Positions 17,354 to 62,526 of a stretch of 64,000 nucleotides of DNA are shown here, piece after piece. The translations under genes were made by a program, and so were the position numbers. The notes under the pieces are model-generated. The model was not told the DNA's origin. It searched no databases and saw only the letters and a list, made by a program, of their open reading frames with translations. The DNA comes from a virus, in the IMG/VR virus record IMGVR_UViG_3300031576_000034, positions 1 to 64,000 of that record; one strand, 5' to 3'. How positions within the stretch are numbered: the first letter of the stretch is position 1; every line of letters begins with the position of its first letter.

Positions 17354-17392
17354 GAAGGGGGCCCAGAGCACGCCGGAATCGACCACCCAAGG
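17354..17392 (+). repeat. dispersed 40-bp element, copy A
   Basis: It begins GAAGGGGGCCCAGAGCAC and ends CGACCACCCAAGG. It matches copies at 37539, 51509 (same strand) and 36844, 50911 and 62256 (opposite strand). Here it lies between the 15-bp and 10-bp tandem repeats in non-coding sequence. The last bases differ (AAGGCA instead of AAGGAG), so it offers no ribosome-binding site. Confidence 0.8.
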
Positions 17393-17420
17393 CAGCCAGT
17401 GCTCAAGCCTTGAATACTTC

Positions 17421-17500
17421 CGCACGCAACCGCACGCAACCGCACGCAACCGCACGCTTCCGCACGCTTCCGCACACTATCGCACACTTCCGCACACCGC
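17421..17500 (+). repeat. eight phased 10-bp tandem repeats
   Basis: Eight consecutive decamers are seen: CGCACGCAAC three times, CGCACGCTTC twice, then CGCACACTAT, CGCACACTTC and CGCACACCGC. The CGCAC core is invariant and the register is exactly 10 bp, so a protein would contact one face of the helix. They may be iterons of the origin region or an operator array for the rightward genes. Confidence 0.8.
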
Positions 17501-17952
17501 CCTACATTGCGAACCTTTTCGGGTAGTTGTAGGCGTAAGTGGTGCGTCCGGTCCCGTCCTCGACTGTTGGTAGTGATCCCACGCTGCTCGAGCGTCGCTA
17601 CCTACCAGCCCACCCCGACCCCTCCCGGCTCGGGCTCGGCGCGTTCCTAGACGCCCGCCTGACAGCTCGCGGCGCACAGCGGCGGGAAAGCTCGCTTGCC
17701 TCCCGCTCGGGCCTGAGGGCTGGCGCGAGGGGGCTGCGACGCGGCGCGCGCGGCCTACGGGCGTGCGGGCGCCTTCGGGAGGGGGCCGGTGGGGGCGGGG
17801 CCGGCGCACGCTGCCATAGTCTGTGACTATCGAAACAGGCATAGCCAAGCACTATTGCTAACTGGAAAATGATAGACTCCGGCTACGACGGGGGCCGAAA
17901 ACCCCTTGACGCGAACCCACAGTTACCTACCTTCGCCCACACTCGGAGCCCC
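17501..17952. other. gene-free leader of the rightward block
   Basis: About 450 bases without a supported gene. The first part is GC-rich. A perfect palindrome, ATAGTC-TGT-GACTAT, lies at 17816-17830, followed by a less GC-rich stretch (CACTATTGCTAACTGG, then AAAATGATAGACTCC) that could hold the promoter of the operon beginning at 17953. Reverse-strand frames here lack sensible composition and were not called. Confidence 0.5.
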
Positions 17953-18327
17953 GTGACCGCCATCGTCCGCAGCCGATTCGCCCGCATCCTCGCCTGGTTG
18001 GCGCGGATCGTCTTCTTCTGGCGCGAGGAGCCGCGATGCGGCAACTGTCGGTACTTCGATCGCGCGGCCTTCGTCGCAACGGTCTCACCGATTTTCGCGC
18101 AGGCGATGGCGGTCATCTCGCCCGATCAGCTTTTGAACCAGAAGCGCGGCAGGCGTGATCCCGAGACGATGGCCGTGCTCGACGACACGCCCGACGATGT
18201 GTCCCTTGCGCTCAAGGGGCGCATGCACACCTGGGATCGCTACGGCGCGTGCGGGATGAAGAACGCGGGCGTCTTCGAGGGTTTCCTCTGCGAGCAGTAC
18301 CGCAGGGGGCGGAACAGCACGGAATGA
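17953..18327 (+). CDS. Cys-containing small phage protein
   Basis: 124 residues from GTG 17953. An ATG at 17869 would add 28 residues but has no clear ribosome-binding site. A hydrophobic N-terminus (FARILAWLARIVFFW) is followed by CGNCRYF and later GACGMKNAG and a final Cys. This is the C-x-x-C...C...C spacing of small metal-binding phage proteins. It overlaps the next gene by ATGA, and that gene has a similar Cys layout. Confidence 0.55.
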   Translation: MTAIVRSRFARILAWLARIVFFWREEPRCGNCRYFDRAAFVATVSPIFAQAMAVISPDQLLNQKRGRRDPETMAVLDDTPDDVSLALKGRMHTWDRYGACGMKNAGVFEGFLCEQYRRGRNSTE

Positions 18328-18728
18328 CCGACGAGAAGAAATACGACGCCGAGTATTTCGATCGGCGTATGAACGATCCGGACGAGATTGCGAAGATCCC
18401 CGATCTCACGGCTCCGAACGTCGGGACGATCCCACTCGTGAGGAAGGCGTCGGCGAACGAACTCAAGATCTTCGCCGATCAAGGGCAGCGCCTCTGTCTG
18501 ACGTGCAGCAACTTCAAGCACCGCGAGGGCCAGGAGTCGATGCGCAGGCAGAAGTTCGTCGCGCGGCTCGTCCACGAGTTGTGGGGCAAGCGCGCGACCG
18601 AGTACCTCACCGACGCCCCGCAGAACATGGGGCTCTGCGCTGCGCGGAGCACGCCGCGCGATGAGGTGCTCGTCGGGCCGAGCACGCCGGCCTGCCCTTC
18701 GTACAAGAAGAACCCCTTTCAGCGATGA
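18324..18728 (+). CDS. Cys-containing phage protein
   Basis: 134 residues. LCLTCSNF, GLCAARSTP and ACPSYK give four Cys in the order C-x-x-C...C...C, as in the preceding gene, so both may be iron-sulfur or zinc proteins with related folds. The N-terminal 50 residues are charged. Coupled by ATGA overlaps on both sides. Confidence 0.65.
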   Translation: MTDEKKYDAEYFDRRMNDPDEIAKIPDLTAPNVGTIPLVRKASANELKIFADQGQRLCLTCSNFKHREGQESMRRQKFVARLVHELWGKRATEYLTDAPQNMGLCAARSTPRDEVLVGPSTPACPSYKKNPFQR

Positions 18729-19708: not shown

Positions 19709-19722
19709 GCACGGAGAACGAG

Positions 19723-21585
<1,863 letters not shown>

Positions 21586-21594
21586 GAGGCATCG

Positions 21595-36787: not shown

Positions 36788-37293
36788 AGTTCCGGCTCGA
36801 GCGGCACCGAGACGAACGCGGGCTCTTCGTCGAGCTGGCGCATCTTGGGCGGTCGATTCCGGGCTGCTCCGGGGCCCCCTTGGAGTACCCGGTCTTCGAG
36901 CAGTGGAATTGCTCGATGTCGCACGCCAGCGTCTTCCGTGGCCTCCACTTCCAAGCCCACCCTCACGCCCAAACCAAGCTCATCACCCTCCTCTCCGGCG
37001 GCATCACCGACTGCTGCCTCGACATCCGCCCTGGCCCGACGTTCGGCCAGCTTCACAAGTTCGTTCTCGAGGTGTTCGAGGGCGTCTTCGTTCCGCCGGG
37101 CTTCGCCCACGGTTTCTACGCATTCAACGCGTCCGTCGTCGTCTACGGGTGTTCGCCGGCTCGTGTCGAAGCCGCGGAGCGCACGATCGCGCCGCCGTTC
37201 AGCGTGCTAACCGCGACGCAGTCGTTGCGGGATCGCGGTGCGCCGGCGCTCGAGGAGTTCGCGGCGAAGTACCCGGAGGAGTTGCCACGATGA
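36775..37293 (+). CDS. rmlC: dTDP-4-dehydrorhamnose 3,5-epimerase-like protein
   Basis: 172 residues, near family length. DERGLFVE, SVFRGLHFQAHPHAQTKL (catalytic His), DIRPGPTFGQLHKFVLEV and VPPGFAHGFYAF follow RmlC. It acts on dTDP-4-keto-6-deoxy sugars. Residues 23-37 are encoded by an inverted copy of the dispersed 40-bp element, between the substrate strand and the QWNCSMS segment, apparently in frame. The ATG lies inside the 3' end of the RmlB-like gene. Confidence 0.85.
   Translation: MEPVKFRLERHRDERGLFVELAHLGRSIPGCSGAPLEYPVFEQWNCSMSHASVFRGLHFQAHPHAQTKLITLLSGGITDCCLDIRPGPTFGQLHKFVLEVFEGVFVPPGFAHGFYAFNASVVVYGCSPARVEAAERTIAPPFSVLTATQSLRDRGAPALEEFAAKYPEELPR
36844..36885 (-). repeat. dispersed 40-bp element, copy F (inside the rmlC-like gene)
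   Basis: On the minus strand it reads CCAAGGGGGCCCCGGAGCAG and then GGAATCGACCGCCCAAG, matching the consensus with a few changes. It is the only copy within the body of a recognised gene and encodes the loop LGRSIPGCSGAPLE. It may be an insertion tolerated in frame. Confidence 0.65.
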
Positions 37294-37556
37294 GCGGCGG
37301 AGCCCTCGACTACGCCTACCAACACGTCGAAGCCGCGGCACGGTTGGTCCAGCAGATCGGTGAACGCGGCGAGGACCTGACGGATGCGCAGCGCGCCAAG
37401 TACGTGGCGTTCGCGGCGCATATCGACCTCGTCGCCGCGGCGTTGCACGACATCGAGTGGGTCGCGTCGGCCGACATGGGGCCGGGGGACGAGATCGCGG
37501 CCATCGACGCCTGCTTCACCGGAACGGACGCGGCGCGCGAAGGGGGCCCGAAGTAG
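37290..37556 (+). CDS. small helical protein ending in the dispersed element
   Basis: 88 residues. Helices such as YQHVEAAARLVQQIGERGED and HIDLVAAALHDIEWV. The last codons (EGGPK) are contributed by copy B of the dispersed element. ATGA overlap with the rmlC-like gene. Function unknown. Confidence 0.6.
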   Translation: MSGGALDYAYQHVEAAARLVQQIGERGEDLTDAQRAKYVAFAAHIDLVAAALHDIEWVASADMGPGDEIAAIDACFTGTDAAREGGPK

Positions 37557-37578
37557 TCGGAATCGACCACCCAAGGAG
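37539..37578 (+). repeat. dispersed 40-bp element, copy B
   Basis: It begins GAAGGGGGCCCGAAG and ends CGACCACCCAAGGAG. It covers the 3' end of the preceding gene and the start of a 150-base gap. The inner part can fold: on the reverse strand GTGGTCG-ATTC-CGACTAC makes a 7-bp stem. No start codon follows the AAGGAG closely. Confidence 0.8.
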
Positions 37579-37710
37579 TCGGGCCGAGCCGCCCAGGCGC
37601 ACGCCACCCGGTGTGTTGGGTGCGAGGGGACGAAGCACCCAGACGGCTCAACCCGCGACAGGATCGGCGATCATGGCGGAAAGCGCAAGGGATGTGGTAC
37701 TGTGCCCTAC

Positions 37711-50153: not shown

Positions 50154-50198
50154 GGGGGGAGGATACCAGAGGTCGGCAGAGGGGGCAGGAACAGTGCT

Positions 50199-50348
50199 TC
50201 ATGGGTACATGTAGCCGTCGTTGCGCGTCCCGGTGCAGACGACAAGTCGGTAGCCGCGCTCGCGCGCTTGTACCGTCCACGCCCTTCTCCGGCCGTCCCA
50301 CGTGTCCGGGTTCTCCTCGCACGGCCGCAGCGTCTCCTCACCGCTCAC
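50199..50348 (-). CDS. 49-residue hypothetical protein
   Basis: From GTG 50348 inside the end of the exported-protein gene: GEETLRPCEENPDTWDGRRR, then ERGYRLVVCTGTRNDGYMYP. Codon bias favours this frame. It lies between the exported protein and the M23 gene; the gap to the latter is 45 bases. Function unknown. Confidence 0.5.
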   Translation of the reverse strand: MSGEETLRPCEENPDTWDGRRRAWTVQARERGYRLVVCTGTRNDGYMYP

Positions 50349-50805: not shown

Positions 50806-50910
50806 GGGTCGTCCTCTGTACTCGCCGACGCGGGGTTACGTCAAGGTCCCGTCGGAATGTACTTGACGGCGCGATTCGTTCGGGAGTACGAAACAGGTTG
50901 TGTTGTTGGG

Positions 50911-50948
50911 CTCCTTGGGTGGTCGGTTCCGGCTGCTCTGGGCCCCCT
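50911..50948 (-). repeat. dispersed 40-bp element, copy D
   Basis: On the minus strand it reads GGGGGCCCAGAGCAG, then CGGAACCGACCACCC and AAGGAG. It lies in the 249-base gap between the exported-protein gene (50805) and the HTH gene (51055), about 100 bases upstream of the former on the same strand. It could be part of that gene's leader. Confidence 0.8.
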
Positions 50949-51054
50949 AATTCTGCGCCGTCCTGAGCGGCGCTGGGTGCGAGGATCTGATGGACGGCAA
51001 GGCACGCATCCGCCCCTCCCGGGGCGCGCAAACTGTGGAATTCTTGGAGGAGTT

Positions 51055-51300
51055 GTGACGCCGCGCGACATCGTCTGCCTCCGCAAGCGTCTTGGCTTCA
51101 ACCAGCCGCGCCTTGCGCGATTCATCGAGATCAACCAAGTGACGATTTGCCGCTGGGAGACCGGGCACAGCAAGCCAGCGGGCCTGTCGCTCGTCGTCCT
51201 GCGCGCTCTCCACGAGGCCGTCTCGACGGACGCGGGTCTGCGGCGGATCCTCAAGTTCCGCGATCTCGCGGAGCTGATCGAGGCTGCGGGGTTGCTGTGA
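51055..51300 (+). CDS. XRE-type HTH regulator
   Basis: 81 residues from GTG with GGAGGAG 5 bases upstream. RDIVCLRKRLGFNQPRLARF followed by INQVTICRWETGHSKP is the Cro/C1 helix-turn-helix (recognition helix VTICRWE). First gene of the rightward accessory operon, so probably its regulator. Confidence 0.8.
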   Translation: MTPRDIVCLRKRLGFNQPRLARFIEINQVTICRWETGHSKPAGLSLVVLRALHEAVSTDAGLRRILKFRDLAELIEAAGLL

Positions 51301-51563
51301 CGTTCGACCTGCGAGGCCTCTGCGACCAGCCGGGCTGCGTGCTCTGTGAAGCGCGTGTGGAGGCAGAGTGGGGCATCGCGCGGGTTGAGCGGGAGGCAGG
51401 GCGAAGGGCGGCGGAGCAACGAAGGGGCCGCGATGTGAATATCGCGGTGGTGGTCGCAGTGTCGGTGATCGTGGCCGTCACGTGTGGGGCGGCGTGGTGT
51501 TCGGCCAACGAAGGGGGCCCAGAGCAGTTGGAACCGGCCATCCAAGGAGTCGAACATGGCTGA
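51297..51563 (+). CDS. single-span membrane protein ending in the dispersed element
   Basis: 88 residues from GTG (GTGA overlap). LCDQPGCVLC gives three Cys; the membrane segment is NIAVVVAVSVIVAVTCGAAW. The final 17 residues are encoded by copy C of the dispersed element, so the protein's own end may have been replaced. Confidence 0.6.
   Translation: MTFDLRGLCDQPGCVLCEARVEAEWGIARVEREAGRRAAEQRRGRDVNIAVVVAVSVIVAVTCGAAWCSANEGGPEQLEPAIQGVEHG
51509..51549 (+). repeat. dispersed 40-bp element, copy C (gives next gene's RBS)
   Basis: It begins CGAAGGGGGCCCAGAGCAG and ends GGCCATCCAAGGAG. The terminal AAGGAG is placed 6 bases before the ATG at 51556, an ideal Shine-Dalgarno spacing. It overlaps the 3' end of the previous gene. 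Confidence 0.8.
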
Positions 51564-51735
51564 CACGAAAGTCGACATCGCGAGGCTCCGAGAACTTCGC
51601 GCTTTCGCAGGCGGCTCCTCGGGTTCGCTCAAGGAGCGTGAAGCAGCGTTGCACGAGATCCGCCGTGCTTTGCCGGCCGTTCTGGACGAGTTGGAACAGC
51701 TTCGCACACAGGTAGAGAAGGCTGCACGACCGTGA
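51556..51735 (+). CDS. 59-residue helical protein
   Basis: MADTKVDIARLRELRAFAGG, then two amphipathic helices (KEREAALHEIRRALPAVLDE). Its ribosome-binding site is supplied by the dispersed element. GTGA overlap with the next gene. Function unknown. Confidence 0.6.
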   Translation: MADTKVDIARLRELRAFAGGSSGSLKEREAALHEIRRALPAVLDELEQLRTQVEKAARP

Positions 51736-52196
51736 AAATCTACGTTGCATCGTCCTCCCGCGACCTCGCCCGCCCCCGCCGCGTCATGGCCGCCCTCGAA
51801 GCCGCCGGCCTCGAGAACGCCCTCGATTGGACGAAGGACATCGACGAGGCCGCAGCGAACGGCTGGAAGACCGATCGGGAGGTCCCGGACGACCTCGCCA
51901 TCCGCTCGGCCGAGCGCGACCTCGACGCCATCTTCAACGCTGACGCGATCCTGCTCCTCGTGAACGCGGGTGGGACGGGGCAGTGGATCGAGTTCGGGTT
52001 TGCGCTCGGCCTCAACGCGGAGCGAGAAGAGCACGATCCGATGATCTTCGTGGCGGGTGACTCCAAGCGGACGATCTTCCTTCGGCGCAAGGAGATCGTC
52101 GGAAAGTACCCGACGGCGCACACGTTGGTTTCCCGGTGGTTCGCGACCGACGAGGAAGCCATCCAGTACCTCATCGGCATGCACGAGAACTCGTGA
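51732..52196 (+). CDS. nucleoside 2-deoxyribosyltransferase-like protein
   Basis: 154 residues from GTG. KIYVASSSRDLARPRRVMAA opens the fold, with ADAILLLVNAGGTGQWIEFG holding the catalytic Glu position of the NDT/YtoQ-like family. These enzymes cleave or exchange N-glycosidic bonds of nucleosides; related domains act in nucleotide-signal immunity. It is coupled to the SLOG-like gene. Confidence 0.75.
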   Translation: MKIYVASSSRDLARPRRVMAALEAAGLENALDWTKDIDEAAANGWKTDREVPDDLAIRSAERDLDAIFNADAILLLVNAGGTGQWIEFGFALGLNAEREEHDPMIFVAGDSKRTIFLRRKEIVGKYPTAHTLVSRWFATDEEAIQYLIGMHENS

Positions 52197-52657
52197 TCGT
52201 CGCCTTCAGCGGGCATCGTCCCGACAAGCTCACTGGGTACGGAGACACCCCCATGCGGCGGAACGTCATCGCAGCCCTCCAAAAGCACCTGGAGGACCTC
52301 CACCCAACGCTCGGGATCTCCGGCATGGCCCTCGGCGTCGACCAGTGGGCCGCCCAGCTCTGCACCGATCTCGAGATCCCGTGGGACGCGTACGTTCCGT
52401 TCAAGGGTCAGGAATCGGAGTGGCCTCGGGAATCGCAGGCGACGTACCGGACGTTGCTCGGCCATGCACGGAGGATCCACGTGACGGCGACGAGCTACAG
52501 CAACGCGGCTTTCCAGCATCGCAACATGGCGATGGTGAACGCCTGCGATCTGCTCCTGGCGGTGTGGGACGGCTCGAGCGGCGGAACAGGCAACTGCGTC
52601 GCGTACGCGCAGAAGGTTGGGCGGAAGATGGTGCGGATCGATCCGAGGACGTTGTGA
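52193..52657 (+). CDS. SLOG-superfamily (YpsA/DUF1273-like) protein
   Basis: 154 residues from GTG. VAFSGHRPDKLTGYGD is the signature start. GISGMALGVDQWAAQLC follows, and DLLLAVWDGSSGGTGNCVAY is the nucleotide-binding glycine loop. SLOG domains bind or process nucleotide-derived ligands. Next to the NDT-like protein this suggests a two-protein module acting on one nucleotide. Confidence 0.8.
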   Translation: MIVAFSGHRPDKLTGYGDTPMRRNVIAALQKHLEDLHPTLGISGMALGVDQWAAQLCTDLEIPWDAYVPFKGQESEWPRESQATYRTLLGHARRIHVTATSYSNAAFQHRNMAMVNACDLLLAVWDGSSGGTGNCVAYAQKVGRKMVRIDPRTL

Positions 52658-53195
52658 CCGCGCTCCCCACCACCCCCGCGACGTGCGGCGAGTGCGAGCA
52701 CGTCATGCGAGGTCGTGCGCCGATCGACGACGCCTGCGGGCACACGTTGTCGAAGCGGATGCTGCTCGTGTCGCGCCTCTCGGTGCCGCACCCGCTCTGC
52801 CCCATCCGCCGCGCAGCGGCGCTCGCGGAGCGGGACGCGGAGATCGCGCGCGTGAAGCGGGAGCACGGCGAAGAGATGGGACGGCTTCTCGCCGCCGCGC
52901 AGGGCACGATCGACGCCACGAAGGCGACCGCGACGCGCAACTTCGAGATCCTCATCGAAGGGCACGCTGCCGATCGCGACCACGCCTGCGCCCGCCTCGA
53001 CGCCACGAGCGCATCGCCGCCGCCATCGCCCGCGCCGAGCAGGCCGAGTCGAAGGTCGCGGCACTGCGTGAGGCGGCGCGTGCCATCGTGCAGCGCGCTG
53101 ACAGCGCACCGATGCCGATGCCGCCGAGCGTCGCGAAGAACTGGCGCGACGACTGCGCCGCTTTCATCCAGCGCCTTGCGAGGGAAACGCCATGA
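52654..53195 (+). CDS. coiled-coil protein with single-base frameshift
   Basis: From GTG 52654 the frame is convincing to about 53005 (CGECEHVMRGRAP; ALAERDAEIARVKREHGEE). From 53010 the frame one base over carries on (ERIAAAIARAEQAESKVAAL, then DSAPMPMPPSVAKNWRDDC) and stops at 53195 with an ATGA overlap to the next gene. A one-base deletion or an assembly error near 53007 explains it; programmed shifting is less likely. Intact it would be about 180 residues. Confidence 0.5.
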
Positions 53196-53626
53196 CCCCC
53201 GACGAGATCGCGCGCCTGCGGGCGCTGCTTGAGAGCATCGACGCGGCGGGCGCGTACACCGACCGCCTCGCGCGCGAACAGGTGGAGCGTGCTCGCGACG
53301 CGATCATCGCCGAGGTGCCCGCCCTACTCGACGCGCTCGAAGCGGCGACATCGGGCGAGGAGATCAAGAACAACGCGTTGCGTGAGTTGGAAGCGGTGCT
53401 GCTCCGACACGAGAACCGCATCGCCGAGGCGACGCGCGAGCGGGACGAGGCGCGGGCGGACGCCAAGTCTCTGCGCAGGACCGTTCAGCCTGCGGGTGTT
53501 GCGGCGCAGCTCGCGTATGACGCGGCAATCCTGCACGGCACCGCGCCGCAGTGGAAGAAGCCCGAAGGGAGTGGCACAAACGCAACCGATGACGCGGCGG
53601 TGCGTGCGGCGAAGGAGAAGCCGTGA
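53192..53626 (+). CDS. coiled-coil accessory protein
   Basis: 144 residues. The start MTPDEIARLRALLESIDAAG matches the gene at 53808 (MTPADIERLRARLA). A long charged coiled coil (ENRIAEATRERDEARADAK) and the end AAKEKP follow. The gene-end sequence recurs elsewhere in this array. Function unknown. Confidence 0.6.
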   Translation: MTPDEIARLRALLESIDAAGAYTDRLAREQVERARDAIIAEVPALLDALEAATSGEEIKNNALRELEAVLLRHENRIAEATRERDEARADAKSLRRTVQPAGVAAQLAYDAAILHGTAPQWKKPEGSGTNATDDAAVRAAKEKP

Positions 53627-53811
53627 AGAGGGGCGAGAAGATCGATCCGTGGATGCGTGGTTACGCCGCCGCACTGGCGAACATCATCCGCACCAACGGC
53701 GAAACAGGCCTCGCGAAGATCGCGATGGACTCGGACAACCTCACATTTCAGGACTTCGTGAACGCTGGCGTCGAGCGGTACGACCTCGACGCGCTCAGGA
53801 AAGCACGATGA
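53623..53811 (+). CDS. 62-residue helical protein
   Basis: From GTG: KIDPWMRGYAAALANIIRTN and DSDNLTFQDFVNAGVERYDL. Compact and helical. GTGA and ATGA overlaps with its neighbours. Function unknown. Confidence 0.6.
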   Translation: MKRGEKIDPWMRGYAAALANIIRTNGETGLAKIAMDSDNLTFQDFVNAGVERYDLDALRKAR

Positions 53812-54301
53812 CCCCCGCTGACATCGAGCGCCTGCGGGCACGACTCGCCCATGAGCACGATGCATCGTGCTACCACACGAGCGCAGATCACTGCGCCGAC
53901 CACCATCGGCACGACGAGCAGTGCACCCGCGCGCTCAGGTGCCGCCTGCCTGACGAGCGCATCTCACGCGCGCAGGCGCTCGCGCTGCTCGACTCGGTGG
54001 AGCGCCTGACGCGCGAGCGCGACATGGCCACGCTGGCTCTTGCGTGGGCACGCGAGGCGTTGAGGATGGGCGAGAACGACGGCGCTCCGGGTGACTACGC
54101 CCGCGCGGCGTTTCATCTCGTCGAGGGCAGCAATCGCGAGCGCGACGAGGCCGTGGCCCGCGAGGCGGCGCTGCGGGAGGCGGCGCAGTTGGTGGTTGAT
54201 GCGCTCCGATTCGACCCGGACGGCACCGGCCCGACTCGGCAGACGCTGACCGACGCGCGCGCGCGATACTCCGCGCCGCGCTCACGCGCGTGGGTGGGTG
54301 A
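53808..54301 (+). CDS. His/Cys-rich accessory protein, frameshifted at a CG run
   Basis: Starts MTPADIERLRARLAHEHDAS like the gene at 53192, then a His/Cys cluster (CYHTSADHCADHHRHDEQC) and coiled coil. At a GC-dinucleotide run (54257-54267) the natural frame seems to change. The frame ending ILRAALTRVGG stops at 54301 and overlaps the next ATG, whereas the nominal frame runs on without resemblance. A two-base slip in the run would do this. Confidence 0.5.
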
Positions 54302-54540
54302 TGGCTCTCACGGACGGCACACGGACGACCGCGCGCTATCGCTGCTGCGAGCAGTGGGGTGGTGGGCGGGCGTGGCGGTGCATCAACGGCGGGCCATTGC
54401 GCCGAGGGGCTCGGTGGAAAGCGGGGCGAGATGCGACGCTGTACCCCGCGGGCTGTGTCCTCGTGGTCAAGACAACGACGATCATCGAAGAGGGCCGCGA
54501 GAAGGGGCGACAGAAGCGCGCGGCGAAGGAGGGGACGTGA
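54301..54540 (+). CDS. small beta-rich accessory protein
   Basis: 79 residues (GTG at 54298 also possible). TDGTRTTARYRCCEQWGGGR, then VLVVKTTTIIEEGREKG and the end RAAKEGT. That end is repeated at 55326 and doubles as ribosome-binding site (AAGGAGGGG) for the next GTG. Confidence 0.55.
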   Translation: MALTDGTRTTARYRCCEQWGGGRAWRCINGGPLRRGARWKAGRDATLYPAGCVLVVKTTTIIEEGREKGRQKRAAKEGT

Positions 54541-54797
54541 CGACTGCCAAGGACCGACGCGAGCTGGTCGAGTCGAGCTTCGCCACTGTGCGGATCGAGT
54601 GCTCCTCGTGCGGCGGCGAAGCGGAGATAGACGTGGAGTTCGTGGTGCAGTCCCCGGGCGAACACCCATACGGGCACCGCTTCGATCTCCCGGAGGGGTG
54701 GACGATCAACGCACCCGAAGGCGCTCTTTGTGGCGTCGGACTCACGTGCGCGGAGTGCAACGGCACGCCGAAGAAGCGGAAGAGGAACAAGCCGTGA
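54537..54797 (+). CDS. zinc-ribbon accessory protein
   Basis: 86 residues. VRIECSSCGGEAEIDVEF and GLTCAECNGTPKK provide two C-x-x-C pairs, a complete zinc ribbon. Basic end KKRKRNKP. GTGA overlaps on both sides. Confidence 0.65.
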   Translation: MTTAKDRRELVESSFATVRIECSSCGGEAEIDVEFVVQSPGEHPYGHRFDLPEGWTINAPEGALCGVGLTCAECNGTPKKRKRNKP

Positions 54798-55081
54798 CAC
54801 CGACACCGAGGAACTATTCGATCCACGGGCTGATCGGCCCGGCCGAGTCGCGCAAAGCCTGTCGCAAGTGTTTGCTCTGCGGGCACCGTAACCATTGTCA
54901 CGCGATGATCAAAGTCGGCGTGCGTCACTACGTCCACGCGCGCTGTGCGATCGACAACGACCCGGCGATCATCGGCCGGATGCCGCACTGGATCCTCTCT
55001 CAGTTGCCGATCTCGGCGTTCGACGGGCAGGACAAGGCATTCCTGACCCGCGTGCTGCGCCTCGTGAGAGACACGCCGTGA
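54794..55081 (+). CDS. Cys/His-rich accessory protein
   Basis: 95 residues. ACRKCLLCGHRNHCHAMIKV has the look of a treble-clef or zinc site, with HYVHARC further on. The remainder is helical. Coupled by GTGA. Function unknown. Confidence 0.6.
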   Translation: MTPTPRNYSIHGLIGPAESRKACRKCLLCGHRNHCHAMIKVGVRHYVHARCAIDNDPAIIGRMPHWILSQLPISAFDGQDKAFLTRVLRLVRDTP

Positions 55082-55326
55082 CCGACCAACACGCTCTCAA
55101 TCGCGCCGTGGGTCTGGCGCGGTCGCCGGAAACTCGCAACGCCGCAGTGAAGGCTGCCCGTGCGCACGGACGCGAGGTTGCGCGGCTGTTGCGGGTCTGG
55201 GCCGTGACGTTGCCGGTACTCAACTATCCTGCCCACCGCGAAGCTCGAAAGCTCGCTCAGCGCGCACTTCGGATCGACGCGGAATACGCAGCGAAGCGGG
55301 GGCGCGCGGCGAAGGAGGGAACGTGA
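55078..55326 (+). CDS. small basic helical protein
   Basis: 82 residues. SPETRNAAVKAARAHGREVA, helical and Ala/Arg-rich, ending RAAKEGT. This is the same seven-residue end as the gene at 54301, with matching DNA, so gene-end exchange is likely. Confidence 0.55.
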   Translation: MTDQHALNRAVGLARSPETRNAAVKAARAHGREVARLLRVWAVTLPVLNYPAHREARKLAQRALRIDAEYAAKRGRAAKEGT

Positions 55327-56132
55327 CCGACATCGATCTGACAGGGTTGGAGGCAGCCGTGTACCGGGCGACAGCGGAGATAGATCGCTTGCGCGCCGAG
55401 CGCGATGCCGCCCTCGCTCGCGCTGAGGCCGCGGAGGCGCGCATCGCGGAGTTGCAGCAGGCGTGGCCGCACATGGTCGACCGGCACCGCGCGTTGGAAG
55501 GCGAGCGCGACGCAGCCACCGTTGCGTTCGCGGAGGCGACGCGAGCCACGGATGCACACGCGCGAGCCACGGATGCACACGGTTGCGCTCTGACGCCGGA
55601 ACGCGAGGCCGATCTGCGCGCGGCGCTGACGACGAATAGCAACTGGGCGCCGACGTTCGTACGTGAGGTGTTCGCGGCACTCGACGCGGCTCGTGCACAT
55701 GCCAGGCATGCTCGTGCAACGATGATCGAAGCCTGCAACTCCGGCGGCCTCGCGCTTCGTCGTGAGCGGGACAAGCACGCCGCTGCGCTCGCGGAGGTCG
55801 CACGGTGCGTGCGGGAGGAGCGATGGGCGTGGGAGCGGAAGGCGCGGGAACGGTCGGAGAGAGCGTGGCATGCAGCGCCGCGACGACGGCTACAGCCCCT
55901 CCGAGACGCCGTTCTCGCCGCCACCGACGCCGCCCTCGCCTCCGGCGCCGCTGCCGGGGCGCGCGTGATCGAGGCGGCGCAGGTGCAGGGGGCGCAGTGG
56001 GAGCAGCAGCGGGTGCTGGCTCGCTTGCACGGGGCCACGGTGCGACTCGCCGACGGCAGTCTTGGAGACGCCGACATCATGGGTTGGCCCGATCCGGCCG
56101 AGGTCGTCGCAGCGCGGAGGGGCAAGCCGTGA
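55323..56132 (+). CDS. long coiled-coil accessory protein
   Basis: 269 residues from GTG. Heptad-rich at residues 18-45 (AEIDRLRAERDAALARAEAA) and 145-230. A 7-residue tandem duplication, RATDAHA and RATDAHG, is encoded by near-identical 21-bp units near 55548-55589. The end ARRGKP has DNA matching the gene end at 58119. Probably a filament-like interaction protein. Confidence 0.6.
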   Translation: MTDIDLTGLEAAVYRATAEIDRLRAERDAALARAEAAEARIAELQQAWPHMVDRHRALEGERDAATVAFAEATRATDAHARATDAHGCALTPEREADLRAALTTNSNWAPTFVREVFAALDAARAHARHARATMIEACNSGGLALRRERDKHAAALAEVARCVREERWAWERKARERSERAWHAAPRRRLQPLRDAVLAATDAALASGAAAGARVIEAAQVQGAQWEQQRVLARLHGATVRLADGSLGDADIMGWPDPAEVVAARRGKP

Positions 56133-56662
56133 CCGCCCCGCTCACCGACGAACGCCTCGCGGAGATCGAGGAGATCCTCGACGGCGGCTCGATGTACGGT
56201 CGGGCGCGCCTGCACCTCGCAGCGGATAATCTGCTTGCCGAGATCCGCCGCCTTCGCGCGCAGGGCGCGATGGAGCGCGACGCTGTTCTCGACGAACTGC
56301 GCCACGTGAAGGAGCAGCGGGCCAGGCTGCGGGCCACGACGATGCCGACGGTAATCTGTCAACGCGCCTGGGGCGAAGAGGACGACTGGTGGGTGGTCGT
56401 CTACGAGAACGCGGGCCGGCTTGCCGGAGCATCGGTCGAGGGCACCGGCGCGGAGATGCGTGCGCTCGCGCAGGGCATCATCGAAGGCGATGGCTACCAC
56501 GCGGTGCGGTGTGCCGTTCGCCGCGCACGCAACGGAAACTGGCAGGTCTGGTCGCCACGCAATCACGCGAGCGACCGGCTGCCGGAGATCAGTCCGGCGC
56601 AAGCGCAGGGGCTTGCGGGGCAGATCCTCCGCGACGTGCCCGACGCGATGGAGGGGCCGTGA
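56129..56662 (+). CDS. accessory protein with helical N-terminus
   Basis: 177 residues from GTG. LTDERLAEIEEILDGGSMYG and LRHVKEQRARLRA are helical; the C-terminal part (EEDDWWVVVYENAGRLAGAS, NWQVWSPRN) looks like an alpha/beta domain. No family recognised. Confidence 0.6.
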   Translation: MTAPLTDERLAEIEEILDGGSMYGRARLHLAADNLLAEIRRLRAQGAMERDAVLDELRHVKEQRARLRATTMPTVICQRAWGEEDDWWVVVYENAGRLAGASVEGTGAEMRALAQGIIEGDGYHAVRCAVRRARNGNWQVWSPRNHASDRLPEISPAQAQGLAGQILRDVPDAMEGP

Positions 56663-56949
56663 GCCGGCTGCGAGAGGTCGTGCGCGCGTCGGTTGTCGCG
56701 ATCGACGCGGGCGGCCAGTCGACGGCGCGCGTGCACGCGGAGATCGTTCGTGCTGCGCTCGCGGAGCGAGGGCTCGGCGCAGACTGCCACGTGGTATCCC
56801 CTGGCAACCCGCGGATCCCACTGAACGACGAACAGATCCTGGAATGGTACGCCGGACAGCTCCTCGCGATCGTCGACGGCGGCACGTGGTTCGCGATGAA
56901 CGCGTGGATCAACTGCGCCGAGAAGTTCGCAGGCATCACGCCTGCTTGA
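56659..56949 (+). CDS. hypothetical protein
   Basis: 96 residues from GTG. VVRASVVAIDAGGQSTARVH, then GNPRIPLNDEQILEWYAGQL. Last gene before a 130-base gap, which contains a weak partial match to the dispersed element (CGACCGCCCAAGGAC at 57024-57038). Confidence 0.55.
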   Translation: MSRLREVVRASVVAIDAGGQSTARVHAEIVRAALAERGLGADCHVVSPGNPRIPLNDEQILEWYAGQLLAIVDGGTWFAMNAWINCAEKFAGITPA

Positions 56950-57081
56950 GATGCGCGCGGCGCGGTCGTGATTCTGACTCGACGCGATCTCGCCATCGTG
57001 GGACATGTGGACGCCGTGACCCCCTCTCACACGACCGCCCAAGGACAACTGGCTCGCTGTGCGGGTCCACAGGAGTGAACG

Positions 57082-57396
57082 ATGGCAACGAAGAAGACGA
57101 AGAAGACGAAGAAGACATCGCCGTACGTGGTGATCCGCACGTACAGTGCGGGCGTCCATGTCGGCGAACTGGTTGCGCGGACCGGCTCGGAGGCCCTGCT
57201 GCGCAACGCACGCCGCCTGTGGAGCTGGTCGGGCGGGCGGCTGTCGCTGCACGAGGTCGCGACGGAGGGCGCGCGCAGCGGCGACCGCATCAGTGTGGCG
57301 ATCTCGGAGATCACGCTTGTCGGCGTGATCGAGGTGCTCGCAACGACGGCGGATGGCGAGCACTCGCTGCGCGTCGCGCCCCCGTACAAGTCGTGA
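57082..57396 (+). CDS. DUF6948 family phage protein
   Basis: 104 residues. A Lys/Thr head (MATKKTKKTKKTS) precedes VVIRTYSAGVHVGELVARTG, ARRLWSWSGGRLSLHEVATEG and SEITLVGVIEVLATT. This is the pattern of a small phage family (DUF6948) of unknown function. The Lys-rich head is encoded by repeating AAGACGAAG triplets. CAGGAG before the ATG is the ribosome-binding site. Confidence 0.8.
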   Translation: MATKKTKKTKKTSPYVVIRTYSAGVHVGELVARTGSEALLRNARRLWSWSGGRLSLHEVATEGARSGDRISVAISEITLVGVIEVLATTADGEHSLRVAPPYKS

Positions 57397-57614
57397 TCGA
57401 CCCCGTGACCGGCCTGCCGCAGATCTCCGGCTACGGCTCTGGCTACGGCCCTGGCTACGGCCCTGGTTACGGCTACGGCTCTGGCTACGGCTACGGCTCC
57501 GGCGACGGCGGCGGCTCCGGCAGCGGCTCCGGCTCCGGCTCCGGCGGCGGCTCCGGATCCGGCGACGGCGACGGCTCCGGCTCCGGCGACGGCGACGGCT
57601 CCGGCTCCGCATGA
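57393..57614 (+). CDS. Gly/Tyr/Ser low-complexity protein
   Basis: 73 residues. After VIDPVTGLPQISGYG the chain consists of GY(S/P)GYG blocks followed by G(S/D)G repeats to the end. DNA is a run of GGCTCCGG- and GGCTACGG-type repeats, so length should vary easily. It may be a flexible or self-associating polymer; coupled by GTGA and ATGA. Confidence 0.55.
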   Translation: MIDPVTGLPQISGYGSGYGPGYGPGYGYGSGYGYGSGDGGGSGSGSGSGSGGGSGSGDGDGSGSGDGDGSGSA

Positions 57615-57913
57615 CCCACGCGCACACAACCGCGCAGGACTGCACCGTCACCGTCCGCCTCGTCGGCGCGAGCGCGGAGATCGTCGGCGAGAGCGTGGAG
57701 ATCGTCGTGCAGCAGCCCTCGCTGCACCGCGCGTGGTGCGCCAGGCTGCATCCGGGCTGGCTGCCGACGCGCCCGGACCCCGTCGAGCGGAAGTGCGACT
57801 GCGGCGCCGGGAGCGTGCGGACGTTCACCTGCTCGCAGGAAGATGCGGGCGCGATCGGGTCGATGCTCGTCTTTGCGGCACGCCCACGGCCGAGCGACGA
57901 CGGGGGCGGGTGA
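57611..57913 (+). CDS. Cys-containing accessory protein
   Basis: 100 residues. The first half is a beta sandwich-like stretch (TVTVRLVGASAEIVGESVEI). The second has KCDCGAGSVRTFTC with three Cys. Shares one base with the next ATG. Confidence 0.55.
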   Translation: MTHAHTTAQDCTVTVRLVGASAEIVGESVEIVVQQPSLHRAWCARLHPGWLPTRPDPVERKCDCGAGSVRTFTCSQEDAGAIGSMLVFAARPRPSDDGGG

Positions 57914-58119
57914 TGCTCGACACACTCAACCATGCCTGGTACGCGGTGACGCGCCCTGGGGACTGCCTCTGCGCGATGTGCCTCGGCGCGTGCGGCGACT
58001 GCTGCAAGCCGGCGATCGTGCCGATCAGGTCGCGTGCTCGCAAGGGATACACACCGTGCTGCGAGACGTGCGCGGTAAAGCGAGCGAAGAAGATGCGCGC
58101 AGCGCGGAGGGGCAAGTGA
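57913..58119 (+). CDS. Cys-rich 68-residue protein
   Basis: CLCAMCLGACGDCCKP and CCETCAVKRAKKM give nine Cys, arranged like a double zinc or iron-sulfur site. Basic end ARRGK. The gene end shares 18 bases with the end at 56132. Function unknown. Confidence 0.65.
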   Translation: MLDTLNHAWYAVTRPGDCLCAMCLGACGDCCKPAIVPIRSRARKGYTPCCETCAVKRAKKMRAARRGK

Positions 58120-58490
58120 TCGCGCTCGCGCAGTACCTCGACTGCGACGACCTGTGGGCGGACGAACAGCGGACCCAAGAGGACCTGTTCGAGCGCGAGG
58201 CGGAGCGTCACGATCTGCTCGCGTTCATCGCTGAGGGCACGAACACGATCTTCGACCCTGCGTGGCGACCGCCGCCATGCGGCCAAGGAGGGCCGCCGTG
58301 CATCACACCGTGCAGCGGGAGCATCGTGGTCGTGGACTACGACACGCTCGCGTGGAAGACGCGTGACGAGGGCTTCCTTGTCTTCGTCGTGTACGCGGAG
58401 CCGCGACCGGTGACGACGGGATGGACGTGCGCGGCGGAGTGGATCCCCGCGCACCGCGTGCGCTCCCCGTGGCCCGCGAGGACGCCGTGA
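58116..58490 (+). CDS. accessory protein
   Basis: 124 residues from GTG. Acidic N-terminus (DCDDLWADEQRTQEDLFERE), then a Pro/Cys-rich loop (PPPCGQGGPPCITPC) and strands (GFLVFVVYAEPRP). No family recognised. Confidence 0.55.
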   Translation: MIALAQYLDCDDLWADEQRTQEDLFEREAERHDLLAFIAEGTNTIFDPAWRPPPCGQGGPPCITPCSGSIVVVDYDTLAWKTRDEGFLVFVVYAEPRPVTTGWTCAAEWIPAHRVRSPWPARTP

Positions 58491-58723
58491 GCGGCTACGT
58501 CAAGCGTCGCGCACGGTCGCAGGCGTGGCGCGCGTTTCGCGCTACGGCCCGCGCGTTCCGCGGACGGCGCGGCATGTGGGCCCGCTACGACTCGGCGCCG
58601 CAGTACCAGGACGGCGGTTCGGGTGGTCGCGTCGTCGTGTGGCTCGCGGAGCCGCTCGTGCTCAACGGCGTCACCTTCGGCGAACACCACAGCCGCATCG
58701 TCGTCTCAGGCGACCGGCCGTGA
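58487..58723 (+). CDS. basic accessory protein
   Basis: 78 residues from GTG. KRRARSQAWRAFRATARAFR is strongly basic; the second half is beta-like (RVVVWLAEPLVLNGVTFGEH). Last supported plus-strand gene of the array. A 35-codon frame after it (58720-58827) is antisense to the next gene and is not called. Confidence 0.55.
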   Translation: MSGYVKRRARSQAWRAFRATARAFRGRRGMWARYDSAPQYQDGGSGGRVVVWLAEPLVLNGVTFGEHHSRIVVSGDRP

Positions 58724-58741
58724 CCGCGCCCGCGATCGAGC

Positions 58742-58936
58742 CTACGGATTGCGGTGCGAACCCAGCGTCGAGCACTCCGCCGCCGTCGCGCGCACGAGCG
58801 CCGTCACCTCGTCGTGGCGCACTTTGAACGCTGGCAGGCTTGGATTGCTGCGACGCTGCTCTCTGTCCGCGCGGAGCTTGCGACGCATCTCCTCGACGAG
58901 TTCCGGCGATGGATCTCGATTCCCATTCTTCATCAC
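58742..58936 (-). CDS. 64-residue charged protein
   Basis: GNRDPSPELVEEMRRKLRAD, then REQRRSNPSLPAFKVRHDEV. Overlaps the holin-like gene upstream by four bases. Function unknown; probably part of a two-gene lysis-type unit. Confidence 0.5.
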   Translation of the reverse strand: MMKNGNRDPSPELVEEMRRKLRADREQRRSNPSLPAFKVRHDEVTALVRATAAECSTLGSHRNP

Positions 58937-59238
58937 GGCCTCCTTGCTTCCGCAGCGAGCCGATCGAGCGCCTCGCTGAGCTTCTCGTGGGCCTCGACGG
59001 CGCTGCGAGCCATCTCCTGCGCGTCCTTCGTGCGAGCTTCCTGGACCTCATCGAGCCGTTTGTAGACACGGAAGAGGGCCCACGCCAGACCGAGGATGAC
59101 CGCCCCGAGCGGGCCTGCGGCGAGGAGCGACGCGGCGATGCCTGGGTCGGGCTCGAGGCCCGCTTGGGCGTACACGACGGCGGGAACGGACAAGATCGCG
59201 AGGGCCGCGCAGAGCTTGATCAGGCCCGGTGTCGACAT
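58933..59238 (-). CDS. holin-like two-helix protein
   Basis: 101 residues from ATG 59238. First segment LIKLCAALAILSVPAVVYA could be a signal or membrane helix with a possible cut after YAQA. The second is GPLGAVILGLAWALFRVY, followed by a charged amphipathic helix (EARTKDAQEMARSAVEAHEK). The layout suits a class II holin or a phage membrane regulator. Confidence 0.55.
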   Translation of the reverse strand: MSTPGLIKLCAALAILSVPAVVYAQAGLEPDPGIAASLLAAGPLGAVILGLAWALFRVYKRLDEVQEARTKDAQEMARSAVEAHEKLSEALDRLAAEARRP

Positions 59239-59241
59239 GCC

Positions 59242-59258
59242 TGTGGTAGTGTACCACA
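59242..59258. promoter_or_regulatory. 17-bp perfect palindrome between divergent genes
   Basis: TGTGGTA-GTG-TACCACA lies 3 bases upstream of the minus gene's ATG (59238) and 7 bases before the plus gene's GTG (59265). The 11-mer GTACCACACAC starting at 59251 is identical to one at 10363-10373. A repressor site controlling both genes is inferred. Confidence 0.5.
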
Positions 59259-59264
59259 CACGTC

Positions 59265-60368
59265 GTGCCGAAGAGGAAGCCGAAGGGTCTCGGGTACCCG
59301 CAGCAGCCGTGCGGGCTCTCGTACGAGCAGTTCCGCTCGGGCTGGCGGTACGCGGACGCCTACGAGTTCATCGCGTTCCGGCCTGAGTCCAAGGGCGTCT
59401 CGCAAAAGGCGGTTCTGCGCGAGATGGGGAAGTTGAAGCGCGCGGAATTTGAGCGGTACCGGGATGAATGCGAGGGAGCTGCGGCGGTCGGGCTCGGCCG
59501 CACCTATGCTCAGAAGCGCGCGATCGAGCGTTCGCGGCTCATCACGGTCCCCGAGGCGCAAGCCCGCGTCGCGTCGAAGGGCCCTGTCCCGACGACGCTC
59601 CCAAGCCACATCAAGCCGTTCGCGAACTGGATGGCGTCGCGCCAAGGACACCTCCCGAGCAATCGCGAGGTGATCAAGGCGTACGTGATCGCGCGATCGA
59701 GTGTGATGCGCGGCGGTCTGCCCAAGGCCACGGTCTGCAAGACCTTCCCCGAGTACCGTGAGATCAAGCGCCTCGCGCAACGCAAGAACGTCCGGCCCGA
59801 GGACACGATGGCGACGCTCCTCTTCACGCCAGAGGGCAAGCGGTATCTCGACGCGGCCGAGCGCGGCCGGCTCGATCAGAAAGCCGCGAAGGCACTCGCC
59901 GAGCGCACGGCGTGTTTCGGCTTCTCGAACGAGATGCTCGCCGATCTCGAGTACGCCCCGGGCCTCGCATGGAAGCGCGACGCTCTTCAGCACGCATACC
60001 GCGGCCCGCGCACTGGGTGGATCTCGTTCGTACAAGAGAACGTGAGCGGGATCTCGGCCGCGAAGGCCGGCTTCTTCGCAGCCCTCCTCGGTCGTGGCGA
60101 CATGCCGACGTACGATGCGCGCGAGATCGCGCTCTGGCGCCGCAAGAAGCCCAAGAAGGGCTCGCCCGCTCCCGAGGGTCCGGAGGTCGAGGCGTTCGTC
60201 GAGCGGATCAGCGCGTACCCGATGACGCTCGCACCAGAGCACGAGCCCTTCCGCGAGCACCTCGTGCACCACGCGCTCTGGGAGGCGTACCCGGTCAAGG
60301 GCAAGCGGAGCAAGACGACGCACGGGGCGACGATTCGGGCGATGCAGTTCGCTGGAGTGAAGCGATGA
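59265..60368 (+). CDS. hypothetical protein with HhH-like segment
   Basis: 367 residues from GTG. Basic start (MPKRKPKGLGYPQQP), helical middle, and VSGISAAKAGFFAALLGRGD followed by MPTYDAREIALW. The last resembles the helix-hairpin-helix plus Asp segment of DNA glycosylases and ligases (GIG.KTA.FLL...GD.PTLD). The end has HEPFREHLVHHALWEAYP. DNA binding is plausible, but no catalytic set was confirmed. First gene of a five-gene operon. Confidence 0.5.
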   Translation: MPKRKPKGLGYPQQPCGLSYEQFRSGWRYADAYEFIAFRPESKGVSQKAVLREMGKLKRAEFERYRDECEGAAAVGLGRTYAQKRAIERSRLITVPEAQARVASKGPVPTTLPSHIKPFANWMASRQGHLPSNREVIKAYVIARSSVMRGGLPKATVCKTFPEYREIKRLAQRKNVRPEDTMATLLFTPEGKRYLDAAERGRLDQKAAKALAERTACFGFSNEMLADLEYAPGLAWKRDALQHAYRGPRTGWISFVQENVSGISAAKAGFFAALLGRGDMPTYDAREIALWRRKKPKKGSPAPEGPEVEAFVERISAYPMTLAPEHEPFREHLVHHALWEAYPVKGKRSKTTHGATIRAMQFAGVKR

Positions 60369-60403
60369 AGGTCCGCTTCTACCGCCGACGCCGACGCCGA
60401 TGA
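60365..60403 (+). CDS. 12-residue polyarginine micropeptide
   Basis: MKVRFYRRRRRR, with ATGA overlaps to the gene before (60368) and the gene after (60400). Perfect coupling at both ends argues for translation. It could be a DNA-binding micropeptide, or a short frame that only carries ribosomes to the next start. Confidence 0.4.
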   Translation: MKVRFYRRRRRR

Positions 60404-61068
60404 CCGAGATCGTCGCGCCCGGCTTCCGCTATCGCCTCACACGCGCCGACGTGCTCTGGGCGGCGCGAGCTGTCGCCTACGAAACCTCCGACGCCGAGGA
60501 GCAGGCCGCAACGCTCTGGACGCTCACGCAGGCGTTCGTCGCCGGCACCGCGAGCGTCCCCGATCCGCGAAGCCGGTTCGGCACCTTCGCTGATTTCGTT
60601 CGAGCCTACGCGCAGCCTGTGAATCCCCTGTGGGATTCGCTCGACGACGACAAGTGCCGCCGGTTTCCCAACTCGTGCACACCGCGACAAATGGCGCGAC
60701 GCACCGAGGCGCGGACTGCACGCTTCGACGACTTGGACGAGCTGGCGGAGTTCCGCGATGCCTCGAACATCGAGGAAATCGTGACGTTGTGGGCCTCTGG
60801 CCTGCTTCCCAACCCTGTACCTGGCGCCGTGGAGTACGCGGCACCGAGCGTCTCCTCGTCGTTCCTCGCACGCATAGACGACGCGGAGATCGTCAGTCGA
60901 CAAGACCAATGGTACATCGCGTTGCGACGCAATCGCGCTCAAGCAGAGCGCGTCGCGATGCGTCCTGGGCCGTATCCGTTCTCGCTTCTAGGCGGCGCGC
61001 TCCTCGCCACAACCATCGCCGGAGCGGTTGTCGGCGGAACGTATGTTGCGCTACGCTGGGCCCGATGA
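60400..61068 (+). CDS. tail-anchored protein, possibly cell-wall hydrolase-like
   Basis: 222 residues. DVLWAARAVAYETSDAEEQA resembles the Glu-containing helix of SleB-type or lysozyme-like hydrolases, and the middle has CRRFPNSC. The last segment (FSLLGGALLATTIAGAVVGG) is a membrane anchor ending in RWAR. The tail-anchor style matches the 1-8 kb virion proteins. Confidence 0.55.
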   Translation: MTEIVAPGFRYRLTRADVLWAARAVAYETSDAEEQAATLWTLTQAFVAGTASVPDPRSRFGTFADFVRAYAQPVNPLWDSLDDDKCRRFPNSCTPRQMARRTEARTARFDDLDELAEFRDASNIEEIVTLWASGLLPNPVPGAVEYAAPSVSSSFLARIDDAEIVSRQDQWYIALRRNRAQAERVAMRPGPYPFSLLGGALLATTIAGAVVGGTYVALRWAR

Positions 61069-61298
61069 AGCTCGACCGCACCGACTGGACCCACCTCGCC
61101 TTGCTAACTGCGGGGGCGACCGGGCTTAGCGTCGGTGCGCTGGCCGTGAGTGACGGAATCAGCCCGCCAGAGCACCCGCGGCCTGTCGAATTTTGGCTCA
61201 AAGCCGCTGGCATATTCGCTGCCAGCGCGGCTTTGAGCGTCGGATTGGCAATCGGTGCGGCGGCGGTAATCGTGAAGATCGAAGGGCTGGACTCGTGA
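61065..61298 (+). CDS. two-span membrane protein carrying a long hairpin in its gene
   Basis: 77 residues. Membrane segments at 10-28 (LALLTAGATGLSVGALAV) and 46-70 (AAGIFAASAALSVGLAIGAA). The codons of the second segment contain a 17-bp inverted repeat (61196-61238). Coupled to both neighbours. Confidence 0.6.
   Translation: MKLDRTDWTHLALLTAGATGLSVGALAVSDGISPPEHPRPVEFWLKAAGIFAASAALSVGLAIGAAAVIVKIEGLDS
61196..61238 (+). other. 17-bp stem hairpin inside a coding sequence
   Basis: GCTCAAAGCC then GCTGGCA, a 7-base loop TATTCGC, then TGCCAGC, a 2-base bulge GC, and GGCTTTGAGC. All 17 pairs are Watson-Crick. In mRNA this would be very stable and could control the tail-anchored hydrolase downstream, or serve as a recombination or processing site. 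Confidence 0.75.
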
Positions 61299-61915
61299 GA
61301 CTCGTACTCGTCGGCGACTCGCACATGGAAGAAGCCGGGCTCGCCCCCGGCCTCATCGACGGCCTGCGCGCCGCGGGTCTCGAGCCCGTCGCCATCCACG
61401 CGACGCGCGGTAAGGGCGTCCGCTGGTACCTCGACGAGGGCCGGCTCGACCGCATCCTCGAAGTCCATCGGCCGACGGTGCTCGTCGTCGAACTGGGCGC
61501 AAACGATTCGGTGACCACGAGCGGCAGCGAGTACGAGCGTCGGCTCGGCGAGTTCGTCACCAAGGCGAAGGCCGCAGGCGCCTCGATCGTTTGGATCGGG
61601 CCGCCGCACGCCACGGACGCTGAAGTAGGACGCCGCCACGAGGCCGTGGCCAACGTCCAGTCGCTCTACTTCGACGGGCGCGGTGTGCCGTGGATCGATG
61701 CGCGGCCGATGACCGCGGACCTCCAGCACGCCCGGGACGGCGTGCACTTCATACGTACGAGCTACGACGAATGGGCGCGCAGACTCGCGCCGGCCGTTGC
61801 CGCCGAAGTGAAGGCGCTCGAACGACGCGGCAAGGTGATGCCGATCGCTGTCGGGCTCGTCGCCGGGCTCATCATCGGCGGGACGGTCGGGGCGATCGTC
61901 GCGTTCTCGCGCTAG
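61295..61915 (+). CDS. tail-anchored SGNH/GDSL hydrolase
   Basis: 206 residues from GTG. VGDSHMEE is block I with the catalytic Ser, VVELGANDS block III (G-x-N-D), and RDGVHFI block V (D-x-x-H); the triad is complete. Residues 182-204 (VMPIAVGLVAGLIIGGTVGA) form a C-terminal anchor. Such esterases deacylate glycans or lipids. Anchoring suggests a virion or envelope enzyme acting on host surface polymers. Confidence 0.85.
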   Translation: MRLVLVGDSHMEEAGLAPGLIDGLRAAGLEPVAIHATRGKGVRWYLDEGRLDRILEVHRPTVLVVELGANDSVTTSGSEYERRLGEFVTKAKAAGASIVWIGPPHATDAEVGRRHEAVANVQSLYFDGRGVPWIDARPMTADLQHARDGVHFIRTSYDEWARRLAPAVAAEVKALERRGKVMPIAVGLVAGLIIGGTVGAIVAFSR

Positions 61916-61957
61916 GCGCGGCACTTCCGCTTTTGCGCTGCCGCTCGACGCGCGCGG

Positions 61958-62248
61958 TCATCGGATGTCGTCCCCTTGCCCGGCTTCTTCCTCAAGCGCA
62001 TCGTACCCGCCCGCCTCGGCCCACGTGTCGTGCTGCACCGTCTCTTCGTCGTTGAGATCGGAGCACGCCTTGAAGCCGGGCCCGTCCTGCACGAGCGCGG
62101 ACACGTCGGCGTCTTGGAGGCCGTGCCGAGCGTACGCGATGTCGCACGCCTCGGAGAGCAGCTCTTCCTCGGTTGAGTCGTTGGGTGCCGAGAGCCACGC
62201 CTCGGTGAGGCGTTGGACGTAGGCGGGGATGTCTTTCAAGGTCGTCAT
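61958..62248 (-). CDS. acidic helical protein
   Basis: 96 residues. MTTLKDIPAYVQRLTEAWLS, then acidic segments (SDLNDEETVQHDTWAEAGG, EEEAGQGDD). Its ribosome-binding site AAGGAG is the end of dispersed-element copy E, 8 bases before the ATG. Function unknown; composition would suit a DNA mimic, but that is speculation. Confidence 0.6.
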   Translation of the reverse strand: MTTLKDIPAYVQRLTEAWLSAPNDSTEEELLSEACDIAYARHGLQDADVSALVQDGPGFKACSDLNDEETVQHDTWAEAGGYDALEEEAGQGDDIR

Positions 62249-62526
62249 CGTCGGTCTCCTTGGGTAGTCGGTTCCGGGCTACTCTGGGCCCCCTTCGGAG
62301 GGCGAGTCCTCGCTGCGTCGTCCGGCCACACAACCAAATCCCACGGGTACGGCGACGCCGTCCCCCGCTCGCGTCTCTGTCGCCCCCGAGCCTCCTCCGT
62401 CAACCGGAACGCTTCTCGCGCTTCGTGTTCGGTCGCGAACGGCCCCGCCTGCGCGATGCCGCCGCCGGATGCGTACCAGGCGGTCACAGTCCAGCCCGCT
62501 GTTTCGCTCGGACGCTCCTCGCGCAC
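62245..62526 (-). CDS. small protein ending in the dispersed element
   Basis: 93 residues from GTG 62526. ETAGWTVTAWYASGGGIAQA and FATEHEAREAFRLTEEARGR look like a compact alpha/beta domain. The last 20 or so residues come from the dispersed element, as in the genes ending at 37556 and 51563. Confidence 0.55.
   Translation of the reverse strand: MREERPSETAGWTVTAWYASGGGIAQAGPFATEHEAREAFRLTEEARGRQRRERGTASPYPWDLVVWPDDAARTRPPKGAQSSPEPTTQGDRR
62256..62300 (-). repeat. dispersed 40-bp element, copy E (gives next gene's RBS)
   Basis: On the minus strand it reads CTCCGAAGGGGGCCCAGAG, then TAGCCCGGAACCGACTACC and CAAGGAG. It is the longest match to the consensus. Its AAGGAG is the Shine-Dalgarno site of the gene starting at 62248. 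The inner GTAGTC...GGCTAC can pair on the plus strand. Confidence 0.8.

What the first reader, a model, noticed from the sequence alone, without database searches (positions are those of the whole stretch)
17354..62300. Dispersed 40-bp element, six copies on both strands, carrying a Shine-Dalgarno core
Copies at 17354, 37539 and 51509 (plus) and 36844, 50911 and 62256 (minus) share GGGGGCCC(A)GAG, CGGAA(C/T)CGACCACCC and AAGGAG. Four abut or overlap gene ends or starts, two provide an ideally placed AAGGAG for the next gene, and one lies inside rmlC. Spread in both orientations and into genes suggests a mobile or copied repeat that has been recruited as a translation signal. I know of no named family with this sequence.
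Basis: partly seen in the sequence, partly recalled or inferred. Interest (0 to 1): 0.7.

Follow-up and report, generated by a model that had tools for sequence, protein, structure and literature searches.

The report
Private 40-base repeat in unclassified virus
An unclassified, GC-rich virus record of 68 kb (host not known) carries six diverged copies of one 40-base DNA sequence, found in no other collection searched here; two copies sit exactly where a ribosome-binding site belongs, but most do not, so it is best read as a copied repeat of undecided function.

Summary
The 68,366-nt virus record contains six, and only six, copies of a 38-42 bp asymmetric repeat, three on each strand, at the stated places. 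Leave-one-out profile searches recover every copy (E 4e-5 or better; the next best match is E >= 3). Two details need correcting: AAGGAG is intact in four of six copies, and the centre varies by 1-2 nt. Copies at 51,510 (+) and 62,256 (-) lie at tight gene-gene junctions and place AAGGAG 6-7 nt before an ATG. They lie over the 3' ends of likely upstream ORFs in two different frames, so DNA, not a peptide, is shared. One copy is antisense inside rmlC. No RNA structure was found. Substitutions (15 transitions, 2 transversions) are evenly spread, as expected from drift after copying. The repeat was not found in the IMG/VR, GTDB, phage or plasmid searches made. The only relative found (30.7 kb, syntenic) lacks it, also in the interval matching copy A. 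Best reading: a virus-private dispersed repeat of common descent, perhaps recruited as a Shine-Dalgarno site twice. A binding site for a virus regulator remains a serious rival. Mobility was not shown: no transposase recognised, no shared target duplication, no clean insertion.

The parts
17354..17392 (+). Copy A, in non-coding DNA between a 15-bp tandem array (17277-17357) and 10-bp iteron-like repeats (17416-17497); tail AAGGCAG, no SD core
36844..36881 (-). Copy B, antisense inside rmlC (36775-37293 +); tail AAGATG, no SD core
37539..37578 (+). Copy C, overlaps the 3' end of an 88-aa ORF (37290-37556 +) whose TAG stop lies in the element; AAGGAG present, no start codon at SD distance
50911..50950 (-). 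Copy D, in the divergent interval between a minus-strand ORF (50338-50805) and the HTH ORF (51055-51300 +); AAGGAG present, no start codon at SD distance
51510..51549 (+). Copy E, over the 3' end of a likely 88-aa ORF (51297-51563 +), frame ...EGGPEQLEPAIQGVEHG*; AAGGAG 6 nt before ATG 51556
51556..51735 (+). 59-aa ORF whose SD is the tail of copy E
62256..62296 (-). Copy F, over the 3' end of a likely 80-aa ORF (62245-62487 -), a different frame (...PPKGAQSSPEPTTQGDRR*); AAGGAG 7 nt before ATG 62248
61958..62248 (-). 96-aa ORF whose SD is the tail of copy F

Best explanation
A virus-private family of short dispersed repeats that descends from one ancestral roughly 40-bp sequence and was copied to six places in both orientations, without an autonomous transposase that could be recognised (copying by ectopic recombination or replication template switching is inferred, not shown). 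Selection mostly tolerated copies at gene ends and in non-coding DNA. At two junctions (E, F) the AAGGAG tail now stands as the Shine-Dalgarno site of the next gene and the body forms the C-terminal codons of the previous ORF, in different frames. Shown: the copies, their common descent, DNA-level rather than peptide or RNA-structure similarity, SD spacing. Inferred: copying route, order of events, use by ribosomes.
For: Leave-one-out homology of all six. Substitutions 15 transitions to 2 transversions, 24 of 36 gap-free columns invariant against 22-26 expected if changes fall evenly on all columns: no constrained core stands out. 1-2 nt indels in the centre. E and F lie over upstream ORFs in different frames, B is antisense in rmlC, A and D are non-coding: no shared peptide. 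All six copies fold less stably than the mean of their shuffles (z +0.5 to +2.1) and no Rfam family matches the window. AAGGAG persists in C and D, which lack a start at SD distance. Absent from the only relative, including the interval matching A.
Against: No transposase or recombinase was recognised, though not every gene was searched against family libraries. No common target-site duplication. B is not a clean insertion in rmlC. Boundary enrichment (P 0.004) and two divergent pairs under 750 bp apart (P 0.0015, noticed after the fact) are not predicted by plain random copying. The evenness test has little power with 12-17 changes.
Confidence: 0.5

Rival explanations
1. The element is a DNA site for a virus-encoded regulator (repressor or elongation-blocking protein), kept by selection at gene boundaries, working like stoperators of cluster A mycobacteriophages or SPBRE of SPbeta.
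For: Asymmetric, virus-private, five of six at boundaries or non-coding and five of six pointing the same way as the gene downstream; an HTH ORF (51055-51300) lies between copies D and E (Pfam HTH matches below the curated cut-offs). SPBRE was an unexplained repeat until MrpR was shown to bind it (PMC10516654).
Against: 38-42 bp is long compared with 13-bp stoperators and the 15-bp SPBRE; centre varies by 1-2 nt; B is antisense deep in a gene; substitutions show no constrained core.
Confidence: 0.3
2. The element is primarily a translation-initiation module, like the start-associated sequences (SAS) of cluster K mycobacteriophages.
For: AAGGAG 6-7 nt before ATG at E and F; weakly folded surroundings; SAS also contain AGGAG, sit 3-7 bp before starts and are largely confined to their phage cluster (PMC3203893).
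Against: Only two of six copies precede a start; A and B lack the SD; C and D keep it without a start; most genes of this virus use other SDs or none, and only 7 of 109 starts have AAGGAG(G).
Confidence: 0.12
3. The copies are ends of small cassettes: B/C and D/E are divergent pairs spanning about 735 and 640 bp and could be terminal inverted repeats.
For: Two such close divergent pairs arise in 0.15% of random placements.
Against: rmlC runs intact across B; no common target duplications; no other repeat shared by the two interiors was listed; the pairs are not the most similar copies.
Confidence: 0.05
4. Chance similarity in GC-rich DNA.
For: GC is 66%.
Confidence: 0.01

Closest known systems
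Start-associated sequences (SAS/ESAS), cluster K mycobacteriophages (PMC3203893)
   Same: Short asymmetric repeat confined to one virus group, holding an SD core next to start codons; function unsettled
   Different: 13 bp, 11-19 copies per genome, nearly all before starts and in one orientation; here about 40 bp, six copies, two before starts, both strands
Stoperators, cluster A mycobacteriophages (PMC9283540)
   Same: Asymmetric dispersed sites, many in short intergenic spaces, orientation follows transcription (five of six here)
   Different: 13-mers, more than twenty sites, repressor known; no binding protein known here
SPBRE of Bacillus phage SPbeta (PMC10516654)
   Same: Dispersed repeat in intergenic regions, first noticed by sequence alone
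   Different: 15-bp motif in promoter regions bound by MrpR; no such protein or promoter link shown here

Membership tests
SAS | Consensus GGGATAGGAGCCC | tested here: not met
   Element reads AAGGGGGCCCAGAGYAG..CGGAAYCGACCACCCAAGGAG
SAS | Virtually all copies 3-7 bp before a start codon | tested here: not met
   Two of six
SAS | Contains an SD core | tested here: inconclusive
   AAGGAG in four of six
Stoperator | 13-bp asymmetric site bound by a repressor | not testable with these tools
   Length differs (38-42 bp); binding needs an experiment
Stoperator | Orientation follows transcription | tested here: inconclusive
   Five of six copies; B is antisense
SPBRE | Bound by MrpR or a homologue | not tested
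   No homologue search was made
Mobile element with target duplication | Direct repeats at the insertion site | tested here: not met
   No common flanking duplication; 4-nt matches at E and F only
Mobile element | Empty site in a relative | tested here: inconclusive
   A absent from the matching interval of a distant relative; B-F not covered by that contig
Structured RNA element | Stable fold or Rfam match | tested here: not met

The most novel reading that the evidence does not exclude
A non-autonomous micro-element that spreads into gene junctions of a virus and carries its own Shine-Dalgarno sequence, so that insertion can supply both a C-terminal tail for one gene and a start signal for the next.
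Probability: 0.12. Interest if true: 0.65.

Novelty: new member of a known kind. Interest (0 to 1): 0.3.

Why it matters
If the copies move and bring a start signal, they would show how a virus can rewire translation of small genes by scattering one short sequence. If they are regulator sites, they point to an unknown control system in a virus for which the phage-record searches made here gave no close match. Either way the claim is directly testable with one reporter and one binding assay.

Tried and rejected
Pattern scans of viral contigs and genome contigs, and blastn against phages and plasmids, gave no match or only partial matches read as chance. Searches of viral contigs for relatives with the capsid-like ORF, the DUF3987-like ORF and PolA alone found none; an alignment of the two capsid-like paralogs found one contig, and a transglutaminase alignment found only that contig again. 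Structure prediction of the capsid-like protein failed (pLDDT 32) and was not used. A promoter reading near C and D was dropped: the scans found none there, and near A only one minus-strand match at 16571-16598. A protein-tag reading was rejected because frames differ between copies.

Full report
Setting. The window is part of a 68,366-nt IMG/VR virus record, 66% GC, without tRNAs or Rfam matches. Of the window, 1-25,000 and 25,000-49,000 were compared with the phage collection by megablast and gave no match; 49,001-64,000 was not compared in that way. Two structural-region proteins and an exonuclease-like protein gave no match there by tblastn; PolA and RmlC gave only matches under 60% identity.

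The repeat. Six copies, A to F, lie at the stated places, three per strand. Hand alignment gives AAGGGGGCCCAGAGYAG, 0-2 variable bases, CGGAAYCGACCACCCAAGGAG (machine alignment). A profile of any five finds the sixth at E = 4e-5 or better and nothing else below E about 3. Shuffled sequence gives none. AAGGAG is intact in C, D, E and F only.

Context. My own gene calls and frame reading place A and D in non-coding DNA, C at the 3' end of an 88-aa ORF, B antisense in rmlC (Pfam dTDP_sugar_isom), and E and F over the 3' ends of small ORFs whose last codons overlap the next ATG. The small upstream ORFs at E and F have neutral coding scores (0.02 and -0.06 per codon against a mean of 0.20 for called genes) and are called mainly on open frame and overlap, so they are likely rather than certain. 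E is read in one frame and F in another, which speaks against conservation of a peptide. Five of six copies at boundaries or in non-coding DNA has P = 0.004 against random placement.

Nature of the similarity. RNA folding is weaker than the shuffle mean for all copies. Changes are 15 transitions and 2 transversions and are spread evenly over columns, as expected after copying from one ancestor; the test has little power and a fully constrained site could look alike. No common target duplication exists. In rmlC the loop holding B is about four residues longer than in the M. tuberculosis enzyme (alignment), so B is not a plain 40-bp insertion.

Elsewhere. Scans of viral and GTDB contigs and blastn against phages and plasmids gave no match or only partial matches. 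One relative, IMGVR_UViG_3300042453_003256, 30,687 nt, shares gene order with much of the left half of the window up to PolA and has no copy, also in the interval matching A. No homologue of a gene next to copies B, D, E or F was found in that contig; of those near C only a short stretch of the ORF at 37702-38046 matched.

Interpretation. Common descent of the six copies is firm. Copying without selection on a core, with two copies now serving as SD sites, explains most facts (0.5). A regulator site is next (0.3), with SPBRE as a precedent for an unexplained repeat later shown to bind a repressor, and stoperators as dispersed oriented sites. A primary start module like SAS fails for four of six copies. 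Two close divergent pairs, B/C and D/E, remain unexplained (P 0.0015, post hoc).

Limits. Gene calls are home-made; 20 proteins were searched in Pfam and 10 in PHROGs, so a recombinase or regulator among the remaining genes could have been missed. No relative covers five of the six sites. Nothing here tests translation or binding.

Noticed in passing
29311-33504: DNA polymerase A fused to an N-terminal uracil-DNA-glycosylase domain, with a LAGLIDADG domain and a weak intein-splicing match at about residues 902-1324; the relative's PolA joins residues 901 and 1325 almost directly, so this insert is absent there.
   Followed up: partly
57-10349: Minus-strand block with two paralogous capsid-like ORFs (30% identical), several ORFs that look by eye like single-membrane-span proteins, short basic peptides and a transglutaminase; the relative has three copies of the paralog. 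No Pfam or PHROGs match for the paralogs; a capsid role and a non-tailed virus are guesses, untested.
   Followed up: partly
16501-16541 and 16764-16804: Inverted repeat of 41 nt, 93% complementary, in the non-coding interval left of copy A; together with the tandem arrays at 17277-17497 this looks like a possible replication origin.
   Followed up: no
36065-36787: rmlB-like ORF of 240 aa that appears by eye to lack the central part of the usual enzyme; not tested.
   Followed up: no
36844-37578 and 50911-51549: Copies B/C and D/E form two divergent pairs under 750 bp apart, unlikely by random placement.
   Followed up: partly
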